Positions 14,008-19,140 of a DNA stretch of 64,000 nucleotides are shown here, piece after piece. The notes beneath the pieces were generated by a model. That model was given only the letters and a program-made list of their open reading frames with translations, made no database searches and had not been told where the DNA came from. This DNA comes from Agelas oroides (taxonomy: Eukaryota > Porifera > Demospongiae > Agelasida > Agelasidae): positions 1,782,304 through 1,846,303 of the forward strand of contig OX422185.1 of NCBI GenBank assembly GCA_949130485.1, written 5' to 3'. Position 1 is the first letter of the stretch. Each line of letters opens with the position of its first letter. The translations under genes and the position numbers were made by a program.

Positions 14008-14251
14008 CCCCACTCCCCTCCCTCTTCCAAGACAGACATTAACCTCACTCATGTAATAAGATCTCTCAGGAATTCCACCACTCTCTTCTCCCACTCCCCT
14101 CCCTCTACCAAGACAGACATTAACTTCACTCATGTCATAAGATCTCTCAGGAATTCCACCACTCTCTTCTCCCACTCCCCTCCCTCTACCAAGACAGACA
14201 TTAACCTCACTCATGTGATAAGATCTCTCAGGAACTCCACCACTCTACTAT
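14008..14251. repeat. 81-bp tandem repeat, 3 copies
   Basis: Units start about 14008, 14090 and 14171 with CCCACTCCCCTCCCTC...AAGACAGACATTAAC. The homologous place in copy 2 (about 29895-29980) has a single unit. Confidence 0.9.
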
Positions 14252-14958: not shown

Positions 14959-15328
14959 CCTGGTTCTAATTAAACTGGACAGTAGGAAGGCCTGGGAATG
15001 GGGCTGGGTTTGGTTACATATGTTCCAACTCAGGCACTACCATTGCACTATCAGTGCTGCATGACTGCACAGATACCAAAAATATATGAGGGGAGGAAGG
15101 GGGGGGGGGGGGGGAGGAGGAGGACGAGGAGCAAGAGGGAGGGACACGTGCAGGGTTCTGCCCACACTGGTCGGCAGCGGTAATGCCCAACCAGTTCTTT
15201 GCTACCCCGACCAGTACTTACCTTCACCGACCAGCACTAGCGCTACGTGGCTAGCAGCTTTGCACCACCGTTGAGTACGATGTGCATTATATAGAGTAAG
15301 CCAGCGAGGCATATTTTTCGAATTGGGA

Positions 15329-15583
15329 TAAAACTACACTATTTGTATGCACATTCCAACCACTAGAAGGGGAGATTTAGTGGGCCCCCCTCCACTAAAC
15401 TCCACCTTCTTGTTTAGAAGGGGACGTTTAGTGGGGGAGGCCACTGAAGTTTTCCTTCTTGTCAAGAAGGGAAAGTTTAGTGGGCCCCTCCATTAAACTC
15501 CGCCTTCCTGTTTAGAAGGGGAGGTTTAGTGGGGGGGGCCACTAAACTTTCCCTTCTTGACAAGAAGGCAGGGATTAGTGGAT
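15329..15583 (+). repeat. Left modular terminal inverted repeat
   Basis: Mirror copy of 17937-18199. Composed of alternating modules (AGAAGGGGAGATTTAGTGGG, then inverted CCACTAAACTCC...CTTCTTG, and so on), giving many nested small hairpins. Confidence 0.85.
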
Positions 15584-15756
15584 CTTGCAGGAATTAGTGG
15601 ATCTTGGTGCACGTGGATCTTGGTAGCACCACTATCCAGGCCATGGTTCCCAGGCAGCGAATGGACAGGAAATGCCTTCAACAGGTGGGAACCTTCTTGG
15701 TACAGCTTATTAGCTATATATAACTCTGTGGTGTGAAAATTAGTCATTTCTACACC

Positions 15757-17807
15757 ATGGAAGAAACACAAGAGGAGTGTGATGTTTGTTTGGAACCTGC
15801 TGTCATCTACTGTGAACAGTGTAGAAAGCCCTACTGCCAGGAATGTAATAGCAGGAGGCATGCCAAGCGGCAAGGCCATCATTACCAGCAGCTCTCACAG
15901 CTACCATTGCTGCCAAAACCTTCTGAAGGTATGATGGTGCCATTATAATCTATAAACAGCTCCAGTCTTTGTATTACTAATGCATTCTGTATTGTCCAAG
16001 CAGTTTGTCCTTCAGTCATAGTGTAGACAGCTAGAGGTATCACCTAACTTCAATATCTCATTTGCAGTTACTGACTTCGATTCAAACAGCTTAACAGGAG
16101 CCTTAGCTAAGAACTTTGGTCACCTCCAACTGAAAGACTGGCAGGAGAAGGTGGTACAGGCTGTCCTCCAAGGCAAACATGCCATCGTTATGCAACCAAC
16201 AGGAAGTGGAAAGAGTGTATGCTTCCAGTTACCTCCTTTCATTGGTGGTGGTATTGCTCTAGTGATTACTCCCACTCTTAGTCTGATACATGATCAGGTT
16301 CACCATCTTTGCAGCAAGGGCATTCCAGCGACGTTCCTGTGCTCCACCCAGAGGGACCATACGATTGCTTCAAGCATCTCTGCTGGCAAGTATAAGGTTG
16401 TTTACCTAACGCCTGAAAGGCTGTTTCCTGGAGGGATCCAACCAGACCATCTCTTCCAGTCATCCACCAAAGAAGAGGAAATCGACAAAGAAGGTATGTA
16501 AAGTTGTACAAATTTGTTGTGGTTTACAAGCCCTTCCTTGTGGTTTATAAGTCCTTTCCCTTGGTTGATATAATGAACATGAAAAAACTTATCTCTTGCA
16601 GAGCCAGAAGACAGAACAGTCTACCAAGCCCTCCACGACCCCCTCGCCACCTGCTGAGCACCCCACAACCCACTCACCACCCACAACCTACTCGCCACCC
16701 ACTCGCCACTCACCACCCACGACCTACTCGCCACCCACTCGCCACTCGCCACCCACAACCTACTCACCACCCACTCGCCACTCGCCACCCACAACCTACT
16801 CACCACCCACTCGCCACTCACCGCCGACGCCATACTCGCCACCTACAACCCACTCACCACCCACAACTCACTCACCACTCACGACCTACTCACCACCTGT
16901 CGTATCACGTAAACCTTGTTTGTGTAGAGGTGGATGTGGAGCCAAGAAGAGGTGTTCTTGTCGGCAACTAGGACAGCCATGTTTGCCCTGGTGTCACCCA
17001 GCTGTTGAGAATTGTTGCAATGAAGGGCTGGCAAGTGAAGCAGATCCAGTAGTGGACATCGATAATGTAAGGGACGTAAAGAGTATTACACCCTGGGTGA
17101 TAATTGGCAATGGACTTGACCTTCTACCAGAAGACAAGCAAGTGATCCTAAGTGGGCAGTGGTTGAACTTCAGGATAATATTTAGCTGGCAATTTCTGCT
17201 AAAACAAGAGCATCCCCAAGTTGGAGGACTGCAGCCTACATTTGGCCGATTTCAGCCACAAAAGCGGGAAATGGTCCAAGTATTGAACTCAGGTGGCAAT
17301 CATTGGGTCGCAGTGTCCAACATAGGTTGCAGTCCGGGAAGAGTCCAATGGCTGGATAGCTTGCATGGTTTGCCATCCCTTTCCCAACAGAGAATAGTTG
17401 CTGACTTGCTCCAGGCAACAGTGGATGAAATTGTGATTCAAACTATGTATGTACAGAAACAGCTAGGGGGTTCCGATTGCGGGTTGTTTGCACTAGCATT
17501 TATCACAGCCGTTCTTAACAACCAAGATCCAACCACACTATGCTTCGAGCAAAACAAGATGCGCAGGCATCTCACCGAATGCTTGGAAAAGAAAACACCC
17601 CTTCCATTTCCCATAACAAAGCGCCGGAAAAGATGACGAGATATACTGCACACAACGGTAGTACCTGTTTATTGTGTCTGCCGCCTACCAGATGATGGCA
17701 GCCGAATGGTGCAGTGCAGTCACTGCTTCAAGTGGTACCATGTCAAGTGGGTAGTCACAGACAACAGTATACTTGAACAGAAAGATTGGTTTTGTAACTT
17801 CTGTTAG
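15757..17807 (+). CDS. Element-borne B-box / SF2 helicase fragment / CXC / Ulp1-type protease / PHD protein (frame interrupted)
   Basis: Exon 1 15757-15928 starts at an ATG in CACCATGG and encodes a B-box zinc finger (CDVC...CEQC...CQEC...H...H). Exon 2 16068-16493 joins in phase and encodes the start of an SF2, RecQ-like helicase: Q-like W-Q pair, motif I TGSGKS, motif Ia TPTLSLIHDQ, and LTPERL; the DEAH box and all of domain 2 are missing. Exon 3 begins at the first AG (16602), which hits a stop after about 17 codons, or at the AG before 16615, which keeps frame. It then encodes a repeat of SPPT units, a CXC-type cysteine cluster (CLCRGGCGAKKRCSCR), and a C48/Ulp1-like protease core with NHW histidine, WLDSL aspartate, the Gln before, and DCG cysteine, all present. 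The frame ends TGA at 17634-17636 after a basic tail KRRKR, and the same frame continues to a PHD-type finger (CVC, CSHC, H, WFCNFC) ending at 17807. Likely nuclear. Whether the gene is functional is doubtful. Confidence 0.7.
16625..16900 (+). repeat. Coding minisatellite (SPPT-rich linker)
   Basis: Tandem CCACCCAC(A/G)ACCTACTCG-type units encode repeated TYSPPTRHSPP. It lies exactly where the second half of the helicase domain would be expected, so it has replaced or bridged a deletion. Confidence 0.85.
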
Positions 17808-17936
17808 CACTCACTGTTCTTTGCGTAATCATCATGGTACTTTGCAACCAGACAGCAAAACTATTAGCATGTGTTTGTTGGGCCATTTACCTTTCTCCAA
17901 GATCCATGTACACATACTCTCCAAAATAGTGGGCCC

Positions 17937-18199
17937 CCCACTAATCCCTGCCTTCTTGTCAAGAAGGGAAAGTTTAGTGGCCCCCCCTACTAAACCTCCC
18001 CTTCTAAACAGGAAGGCGGAGTTTAATGGAGGGGCCCACTAAACTTTCCCTTCTTGACAAGAAGGAAAACTTCAGTGGCCTCCCCCACTAAACCTCGCCT
18101 TCTAAACAAGAAGGCGGAGTTTAGTGGAGGGGGGCCCACTAAATCTCCCCTTCTAGTGGTTGGAATGTGCATACAAATAGTGTCATTTTGTACCAACCC
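17937..18199 (-). repeat. Right modular terminal inverted repeat
   Basis: Inverted copy of 15329-15583, including the innermost CACTAATCCCTGCCTTCTTG and outermost AATAGTGTCATTTTGTACC. Confidence 0.85.
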
Positions 18200-18266: not shown

Positions 18267-18876
18267 TAGCCTCGTTCCCAGGCCTTCCCCGGCTCCAGCT
18301 TTTGATCGCTTGCAGTATGCAAAAACGGAGGGAGAAGGCCTGGTGAATCTTACCACGTGATCCGCGGCACACATGACGTCACAGGTTCTAGACACGAAGA
18401 CATATTCCCATTTATATCTCCAGCTAGAGAGAAGCGAGAGAATCAAGACAAGATCCAGCCGAGAGACAAGTCCTACCTCTAGAACATAACCGAGTCTGAA
18501 GCAGAACCGCTGAAGGATTGTTCCGCTGCAAGTGTTGCAAATCCAAAAGCGGCTCCTTTTTCGCTACGTTAGCTAAATTTTGTCACTGCAGATATTTCAC
18601 ACATGTCGTTCGGCAACCCTTCGGAGCTATTCCTTCTAGCTCGGATATGTTTTGTACGAGTGATGTTGTTCTCCGTCAGCGCTTGTCTCATCTTCGTAGC
18701 TAGTACAGAACGCAAGATCGGTCTTCTCCCTAGCATGGCTATAGTATGTAAGCGTGACGACATGTGACGCCTGTGCCGCGGATCACGTGGTAAGATTCAC
18801 CAGGCCTTCTCCCTCCGTTTTTGCATACTGCAAGCGGTCAAACACTGGAGCCGGGGAAGGCCTGGGAACGAGGCTA
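18267..18876. mobile_element. TAGYCTYG-family TIR element with empty site in the paralogue
   Basis: Ends TAGCCTCGTTCCCAGGCC and GGCCTGGGAACGAGGCTA, long TIR including the CGGCTCC...TTGATCGCTTGCAGTATG region and a further inverted TGATCCGCGGC. Target GTACTGAA is duplicated (18259-18266, 18877-18884); the paralogous site at 31476-31483 has one copy and no insert. 610 bp, no gene. Confidence 0.92.
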
Positions 18877-19038: not shown

Positions 19039-19140
19039 GGTTGTCGTAGCTCAGAGGCAGAGCATCAGCTGACAAGCCAGGTGTCCTGGGTTCGATTCCC
19101 AGCGACTGCCGGACTTTTCACTTCCCTCTATTTTCACCTC
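19039..19140 (+). repeat. tRNA-derived SINE, copy 1
   Basis: Head 19039-19112 has a Pol III A box (TAGCTCAGAGGC) and a consensus B box (GGTTCGATTCC), a good T arm (CTGGG/CCCAG), D arm (GCTC/GAGC) and acceptor-like pairing, but a poor anticodon stem. A tail CTTTTCACTTCCCTCTATTTT follows. Four further copies share head and tail, so this is a SINE rather than a functional tRNA gene. Confidence 0.75.

What the first reader, a model, noticed from the sequence alone, without database searches (positions are those of the whole stretch)
15320..18199. Gene-bearing TIR element coding for B-box, helicase piece, CXC, Ulp1-type protease and PHD finger
Seen: two inverted arms of about 260 bp with alternating modules enclose a spliced gene whose domains (B-box, SF2 helicase motif I, CXC cluster, complete H/D/Q/C Ulp1 core, PHD) are an unusual set. 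No known transposase is visible. Known: Ulp1-type proteases and CXC clusters occur with KDZ and some Mutator-like transposons. Inference: a member of a little-described sponge transposon superfamily, or a passenger that captured protease and chromatin-reader domains.
Basis: partly seen in the sequence, partly recalled or inferred. Interest (0 to 1): 0.85.

Follow-up and report, generated by a model that had tools for sequence, protein, structure and literature searches.

The report
Deleted RecQ-helicase transposon with SUMO-type protease
The stretch is a broken, shortened copy of a many-copy jumping gene whose longer relatives in the same genome join a zinc-binding B-box, a RecQ DNA helicase, a Mutator-like transposase and, in many of them, a SUMO-type protease in one protein, a combination I did not find described.

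Summary
The inverted arms are real (15323-15581 / 17938-18196, 8 mismatches in 259 nt) and recur elsewhere in the genome. The domains are real too, but not one working gene: the frame breaks at 16460, where the helicase exon is joined to the last coding bases of a transposase exon, and a TGA at 17634 separates protease from PHD. A C14 copy (98% identical in arm and protease) keeps that transposase exon spliced in frame to protease and PHD. So this is an internally deleted, non-autonomous copy.

Fuller relatives: one (C4) reads through 14 exons (1,479 aa, no stop) as B-box, RecQ helicase, DDE transposase, Ulp1-like part; another (C1) has ubiquitin-like, B-box, RecQ and DDE in one intronless frame of 1,511 codons. 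Nine of nine family members checked have 8-9-bp target-site duplications, six exact 9-mers; the window copy has none. The transposase carries Mutator-type D, D, C-x2-H, E motifs, but its Pfam match to the Mutator family stays below threshold.

Best reading: a divergent Mutator-like lineage with a helicase-transposase. RecQ is reported in Kolobok and Academ, Ulp1/PHD in Mutator and Ginger1; this combination was not seen in my paper searches. New variant of a known kind.

The parts
15323..15581 (+). 5' terminal inverted repeat made of 49-bp dyad modules; 4 of its 8 mismatches to the other arm lie in the outermost 13 bases
   Evidence: copies elsewhere in the genome
17938..18196 (-). 3' terminal inverted repeat, same modules
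15757..15928 (+). B-box zinc finger exon; first ATG of the frame at 15757 (start inferred), ends at a GT donor in phase 1
   Evidence: zf-B_box 1.3e-7, ANCHR-like B-box 2.6e-8; the B-box exon of L042 ends at a similar donor
16068..16459 (+). exon with N-terminal part of a RecQ-type helicase (GSGKS loop present); truncated by the deletion
   Evidence: DEAD 2.2e-15; 39% identical to the L042 RecQ over 131 aa
16459..16460 (.). deletion junction: rest of helicase and nearly all of the transposase are missing here
   Evidence: 16460-16640 matches the C14 copy at 180 of 181 bases, upstream does not
16460..16493 (+). last bases of the transposase exon (basic stretch), out of frame with the helicase; donor at 16494
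   Evidence: in L043 the same bases are read in frame
16602..17633 (+). exon with 18-bp repeats, Cys cluster (about 16905-17030) and Ulp1/C48 protease (codons H 17301, D 17355, Q 17460, C 17478)
17634..17636 (+). premature TGA between protease and PHD; open in the C14 copy
17637..17804 (+). PHD finger, cut off from the protease frame by the TGA
   Evidence: PHD 1.1e-7

Best explanation
The window element is an internally deleted, frame-broken, non-autonomous copy of a DNA transposon. The parent type encodes one long protein: B-box, RecQ helicase with RQC-like part, a C-C-H-H stretch (by eye), DDE transposase of Mutator-like type, a basic stretch, then (in this subfamily) Cys cluster, Ulp1/SUMO-type protease and PHD finger. 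Shown: architecture, long modular TIRs, 8-9-bp target duplications in family members, many copies, conserved catalytic motifs. Inferred: the transposase binds the repeated dyad modules in the TIRs, cuts and joins the ends with the DDE site, and leaves staggered 9-bp cuts; the fused RecQ helicase unwinds the ends or the gap/fork intermediates so that the host repairs or copies the element; Ulp1, B-box and ubiquitin-like parts edit SUMO/ubiquitin marks on the complex or on repair proteins; PHD steers it to chromatin. The window copy could at most be moved in trans.
For: Window versus C14 copy: deletion junction and frames. L042: 14 exons, 13 GT-AG introns, 1,479 aa without an internal stop; its first 637 aa match solved WRN at 7e-57 and RecQ near 1e-53. 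L066: one uninterrupted frame of 1,511 codons with ubiquitin-like 1.6e-7, DEAD 3.5e-25, Helicase_C 5.3e-15 and the DDE region, no splicing assumed. B-box, helicase, DDE and Ulp1 parts in the same order by tblastn in L046, L053-L056; L052 and L047 in part (see report). TSDs: exact 9-mers in L041, L042, L046, L047, C5:6861k, C1:14597k; 8 bp in C14:5102k, C22:3900k, C1:34k. 13 of 91 helicase matches lie 0.7-5.2 kb upstream, same strand, of one of 150 listed Ulp1 matches (1 pair in another arrangement); random placement mean 0.26, maximum 3 in 500. Motifs in the 9-row alignment: DWSD, KGC-x-V and TNAVE in 9 of 9; the C-x2-H histidine in 8 of 9 (the L053 row reads into an intron; its own exon has it); the first D in the 7 rows that cover it properly. 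Profile comparison with MULEs of the same genome: score 33.4 and 31.4 versus decoy maxima 20.5 (30) and 21.2 (60) and 18.5 reversed. Transposase_mut is the only transposase family reported for 5 of 7 DDE pieces scanned.
Against: The window copy has no detectable target duplication, so its own insertion event is not shown. No member passes the Pfam cut-off for a Mutator model (Transposase_mut 0.0085-0.2; nothing for L046 and L067, and nothing up to E 1 when the whole L066 frame was scanned). hhalign's own probability is only 11-19% with the larger sets (75% with a two-sequence set), and it printed a merge-format error although it gave a result. The DDE region has no PDB match. The Ulp1 part of L042 is not reported by Pfam and rests on similarity to the window's protein and motifs; L041 and L046 are sub-threshold. 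Of the 13 linked pairs, L044 proved different on reading (no match to the L042 protein; HIRAN-Ulp1 frame), and two pairs at C8 were not read. L041, L043, L046 and L047 are each broken somewhere. dN/dS between L041 and L042 rests on few changes (14 synonymous, 19 not; DDE part 1 versus 5). Splicing is inferred; no RNA data. One genome only.
Confidence: 0.85

Rival explanations
1. The element belongs to a separate, undescribed superfamily of helicase-transposases that shares the D-D-C-x2-H-E plan with Mutator only distantly.
For: No member passes the Pfam Mutator cut-offs, while 119 other matches in the same genome reach the MULE cut-off (the eight Ulp1-linked ones mostly just, 27.5-29.5 bits against 27.6, one at 48.9). 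Helicase and DDE are joined in both an intron-bearing and an intronless lineage.
Against: Repeated sub-threshold Transposase_mut/IS256 matches at the same profile region; alignment to MULEs above all decoys; 9-bp duplications and long TIRs are Mutator traits (PMC6446971 and PMC3627910, passages).
Confidence: 0.3
2. Passenger model: a Mutator-like TIR element captured host RecQ, B-box, protease and chromatin-reader fragments (Pack-MULE style).
For: MULEs tend to acquire host gene fragments (abstract of PMC6446971). The window copy on its own looks like a patchwork.
Against: The same domain order recurs in diverged subfamilies, helicase pieces 37-58% and DDE pieces 34-59% identical to L042; long open frames exist; helicase, DDE and Ulp1 are all multi-copy and helicase and Ulp1 are linked.
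Confidence: 0.04
3. Domesticated host gene: the window locus is a functional gene derived from a transposon.
For: The CXC-Ulp1 frame is open over 355 codons here and 98% identical to the C14 copy.
Against: Frame break, TGA, truncated helicase, flanking TIRs, sister copies with stops (C4:3709983, C14:5179139).
Confidence: 0.04

Closest known systems
Mutator-like elements carrying Ulp1 (plants, Hydra, lancelet), as described in PMC2836005 (passages)
   Same: Ulp1-type protease joined to a Mutator transposase; loci L057-L059 in this genome are of this type
   Different: No RecQ helicase or B-box mentioned in the passages read; the DDE core here stays below the Pfam Mutator cut-offs
KolobokH and one red-algal Kolobok with RecQ helicase (PMC9587614, passages)
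   Same: RecQ helicase encoded with a DDD/E transposase
   Different: Kolobok makes TTAA 4-bp duplications; KolobokH is reported from fungi only, helicase downstream of the transposase; here 8-9 bp, helicase upstream in the same protein
Academ (RecQ helicase in Academ, one sentence in PMC3627910)
   Same: RecQ helicase in a DNA transposon
   Different: Academ duplications are 3-4 bp (recalled); no Ulp1 or B-box recalled
Ginger1 with Ulp1 and PHD (PMC2836005, passages)
   Same: C-terminal Ulp1, in one family with PHD
   Different: Ginger1 has a Gypsy-type integrase core; none was reported here
Rehavkus (PMC6446971, passages)
   Same: MULE-related, PHD finger, long TIRs
   Different: No helicase or protease mentioned in the passages read

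Membership tests
Mutator superfamily (MULE) | 8-11-bp (typically 9-bp) target site duplication | tested here: met
   9 of 9 family members examined have 8-9 bp, 6 of them exact 9-mers (the L042 one read by eye). The window copy itself: none found
Mutator superfamily (MULE) | Long terminal inverted repeats | tested here: met
   259 nt in the window, about 300 in L041, 249-466 in pieces in L046, about 440 in the L066 family (inverted match)
Mutator superfamily (MULE) | Catalytic D, D, E with C-x2-H between second D and E | tested here: met
   Motif alignment of 9 loci; the window copy has lost this region
Mutator superfamily (MULE) | Significant profile match to MULE / Transposase_mut | tested here: inconclusive
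   Transposase_mut E 0.0085-0.2 for 5 of 7 DDE pieces, none over cut-off, not reported for the whole L066 frame; hhalign E 0.0012-0.0026, above all decoys
Mutator superfamily (MULE) | RNase H fold of the core | not tested
RecQ helicase | SF2 core plus RecQ zinc-binding and RQC | tested here: met
   Relatives: WRN 7e-57, RecQ_Zn_bind 3.8e-7 in L042, sub-threshold in L046, L066, L067; RQC 0.0036 (L046) and 0.00029 (L067), both sub-threshold. Window copy: only the N-terminal part
Ulp1 / C48 protease | H-D-Q-C catalytic residues and C48 profile match | tested here: met
   Window: 2.6e-5, over cut-off, residues. L041 and L046 sub-threshold, L042 not reported
Kolobok (KolobokH) | TTAA 4-bp target duplication | tested here: not met
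   Duplications are 8-9 bp and not TTAA; definition from PMC9587614
KDZ transposons | KDZ transposase domain | tested here: not met
   No KDZ family in Pfam scans at E up to 10 of the transposase pieces; that Pfam holds a KDZ model is recalled
Ginger1 | Gypsy-type integrase core | tested here: not met
   No integrase family in the same scans
Academ | 3-4-bp target duplication (recalled) | tested here: not met
   8-9 bp

The most novel reading that the evidence does not exclude
A separate superfamily of eukaryotic DNA transposons whose transposase is a single-chain helicase-transposase: the fused RecQ motor is part of the transposition reaction (for example unwinding ends or copying from a fork), and attached SUMO/ubiquitin editing and reading modules (Ulp1, B-box, ubiquitin-like, PHD) control host repair at the site.
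Probability: 0.28. Interest if true: 0.82.

Novelty: new variant of a known kind. Interest (0 to 1): 0.62.

Why it matters
It puts a RecQ helicase and a Mutator-like DDE transposase in one polypeptide, in at least two lineages of one genome, with duplicated target sites and near-identical copies that suggest recent movement. If the helicase takes part in the reaction, the role of helicases in eukaryotic DNA transposition becomes directly testable. It would also explain part of the 91 RecQ-like and at least 153 Ulp1-like matches in this genome, which annotation could otherwise read as expansions of host genes.

Tried and rejected
KDZ, Ginger1, Kolobok and Academ were considered and set aside (see membership test). 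Gene-capture passenger and domesticated gene were judged unlikely as above. A target duplication for the window copy was searched for, exact and with one mismatch, and not found. A 29-mer I used to locate the deletion junction was absent from the C14 copy because of one base difference; BLAST then placed the junction. A codon comparison of window and L022 was made on the wrong strand and is discarded. A first attempt at the L042 gene model stopped on a donor I had mistyped. dN/dS gave too few changes to weigh. The viral-contig scan with the transposase found no relative. The species was not identified: of 252 papers with the terms, 25 were listed, and none of the abstracts shown gives 259.3 Mb. 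A RecQ plus Mutator/Ulp1 transposon was not seen in searches (0 papers; 4 of 4 listed; 20 of 118; 20 of 118; 15 of 154; 15 of 96; 15 of 25; 12 of 935): open PMC papers only, mostly seen as listings; Repbase cannot be searched here. Papers: passages of PMC9587614, PMC2836005, PMC6446971 and PMC3627910; all others as listings with the start of the abstract.
Full report
Observation. The window element lies between two arms, 15323-15581 and 17938-18196, 259 nt each and 97% complementary. Eight bases differ, four of them in the outermost 13. The arms consist of 49-bp modules that are themselves inverted repeats. Between them Pfam finds a B-box, the N-terminal part of a DEAD-type helicase, a C48/Ulp1 protease and a PHD finger, each over its cut-off. 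In 26 aligned rows of related loci (L023 and L029 are one place) the protease H is kept in 25 (lost in L031), D in 25 (lost in L028), Q and C in 26. A Cys cluster precedes the protease; its seven Cys recur in L022, L024-L027, L030 and L031, not all in L029. No Pfam CXC family was reported for it.

The gene is broken. From 16460 on, the window matches the C14 copy (L043) at 180 of 181 bases, while the bases before 16460 do not. In L043 this segment ends an exon reading STNAVEAYNRL...PPKKRKSTKK, followed in phase by the exon with Cys cluster, Ulp1 and PHD (451 codons open). In the window the helicase exon enters this segment in another frame and meets a stop 18 codons after the same splice. A TGA at 17634 also separates Ulp1 from PHD. 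The window copy has therefore lost the rest of the helicase and nearly all of the transposase. L043 is deleted too, but differently: it keeps a helicase C-terminal part and the transposase C-terminal part. I take both as remnants of a longer parent.

The family. The arm is found elsewhere at C14 (98%), C14 (81%), C4 (86%) and C12 (81%), over all or part of its length. The helicase exon has 91 matches in the genome, the CXC-Ulp1 exon at least 153, of which 150 were listed. Thirteen of 91 helicase matches, the window's among them, lie 0.7-5.2 kb upstream of a listed Ulp1 match on the same strand, and one pair has another arrangement; random placement gives 0.26 on average and at most 3 in 500. 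Of the 13 places I read 11: the window, L041, L042, L044, L046, L047 and L052-L056; the two at C8 were not read whole. With the L042 protein, tblastn finds B-box, helicase, DDE and Ulp1 parts in order in L046 and L053-L056, L056 lacking a middle part. In L052 it finds B-box, helicase and DDE; its Ulp1 part was found only with the window's protein and without the catalytic Cys region. L047 shows helicase, DDE and Ulp1 (B-box not asked). L044 gave no match to the L042 protein: it has a 5' piece like the window's and a HIRAN-Ulp1 frame. L046 also has a PHD finger after Ulp1.

A complete protein. In L042 (C4:8127500-8137499) fourteen exons with thirteen GT-AG introns give 1,479 aa with no internal stop. 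I chose the boundaries by sequence; no RNA was available. The first 637 aa match solved WRN at 7e-57 and bacterial RecQ near 1e-53; RecQ_Zn_bind is 3.8e-7. Pfam does not report its Ulp1 part, which rests on similarity to the window's and on the motifs. Splicing need not be assumed for the fusion of helicase and transposase: in L066 (C1:33500-41500) one uninterrupted frame of 1,511 codons (first ATG at codon 33) holds a ubiquitin-like domain (1.6e-7), a B-box (1.1e-4, slightly under cut-off), helicase (3.5e-25 and 5.3e-15), RecQ zinc-binding (0.0018, under cut-off) and the DDE region. No Ulp1 match was seen in L066. Stretches beside its frame recur in many copies; a 1,571-base stretch just upstream is 100% (rounded) identical between C1 and C5 and 99% in C14, which points to recent movement.

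Transposition marks. Target duplications: L046 ATTTGATCA, L047 CAGTAAGAC, L041 TTTCTTTCT (within an 11-bp repeat), L042 TTACCTGGG (by eye, right end in L045); L066 family: GTATCATGA at C5 and GCCCAAAAG at C1:14597k, and 8 bp at C14, C22 and C1:34k. That is 9 of 9 examined. The C22 and C1:14597k copies are short and were not shown to carry the gene. The window copy shows none; by eye its outer ends resemble the opposite ends of L043 and L044, which hints at exchange between TIRs (inference).

What kind of transposase. In a nine-row alignment DWSD, KGC-x-V and TNAVE are in 9 of 9 rows, the C-x2-H histidine in 8, and the first D in the 7 rows that cover it properly; the L055 and L053 rows contain stretches read into introns (their own exons are). 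Among the 24,736 Pfam models the only transposase family to appear is Transposase_mut, below threshold, for L042 (0.2), L053 (0.0085), L054 (0.016), L056 (0.16) and a piece of L066 (0.098); L046 and L067 give none, and the whole L066 frame gives none up to E 1. NCBIfam gives IS256 at 0.014 for L042 and 0.074 for L053, nothing for L054 and L056. The profile aligns with MULEs of the same genome at D, D and C-x2-H with score 33.4 and 31.4, above 30 and 60 shuffled decoys (maxima 20.5 and 21.2) and a reversed control (18.5), though hhalign's own probability is low (19% and 11%) and it printed a merge-format error. Pfam MULE matches lie just upstream of relatives of the window's Ulp1 in 8 of 119 cases (random mean 0.30, maximum 3). 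The three read (L057-L059) carry Ulp1 and PHD-like ends (PHD under cut-off in L057, by eye in the others) and gave no match to the helicase part of the L042 protein. Together this favours a divergent Mutator-like lineage; a separate superfamily is not excluded.

Mechanism. Shown: the parts, their order, duplications, multi-copy spread, conserved active-site residues. Inferred: DDE strand transfer at the repeated TIR modules; RecQ unwinding at ends or intermediates; protease, B-box, ubiquitin-like and PHD parts acting on SUMO/ubiquitin and chromatin. PMC2836005 (passages) suggests that Ulp1 and OTU domains of transposons may activate repair factors during or after transposition, which fits but was not tested here. 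The window copy can move, if at all, only with proteins made elsewhere.

What is known. Ulp1 in Mutator elements of Hydra, lancelet and plants, and Ulp1 with PHD in Ginger1 (PMC2836005); RecQ in KolobokH of fungi and in one red-algal Kolobok (PMC9587614); RecQ in Academ (PMC3627910). The main text of the MULE survey PMC6446971 holds no word beginning with ULP, helicase, sponge or Porifera. I saw no description of a RecQ-DDE-Ulp1 protein in my searches, which cover only open PMC papers and mostly their top listings.

Verdict. The window copy is debris of a transposon; the transposon type behind it is new to my searches and worth following.

Noticed in passing
window 18267-18876: A 610-bp MITE-like repeat with 105-nt inverted arms next to the element; the other 39 of the 40 places scored (of 1291 candidates) match nearly full length at 94-99%.
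   Followed up: partly
L066 (C1:33500-41500); further copies at C5:6861019-6865548 and C14:5102404-5111809: Intronless lineage: ubiquitin-like, B-box, RecQ, DDE in one 1,511-codon frame in L066, with a Tudor-like C-terminus by eye (no Pfam match); long TIRs, 8-9-bp duplications, and short copies.
   Followed up: partly
L057, L058, L059 (C4:4683200, C10:4874300, C1:5453500): MULE transposase loci followed by Ulp1 and a PHD-like end, no RecQ match; L057 and L058 hold long open frames.
   Followed up: partly
L044 2715-3722 (+) (C12:1010000-1016500): Open frame joining a HIRAN-like domain (3.4e-5) to a Ulp1-type protease (7.4e-4), both just under cut-off, near a 5' piece of the window's element.
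   Followed up: no
L044 3944-4711 (-): DDE_1 transposase frame, 2.5e-10; likely pogo/Tigger-like (recalled).
   Followed up: no
window 19039-19111: ARAGORN calls a tRNA-Cys with anticodon ACA, an odd pairing; perhaps a tRNA-derived repeat.
   Followed up: no
window 14009-14251: Three tandem copies of an 81-bp unit, the second and third 96% and 93% identical to the first.
   Followed up: no
L024-L027 (C2, C10, C1, C17): Four loci with Cys cluster and Ulp1 49-50% identical to the window's protein; in L026 the 348-codon frame also ends in a PHD finger; their full elements were not read.
   Followed up: no
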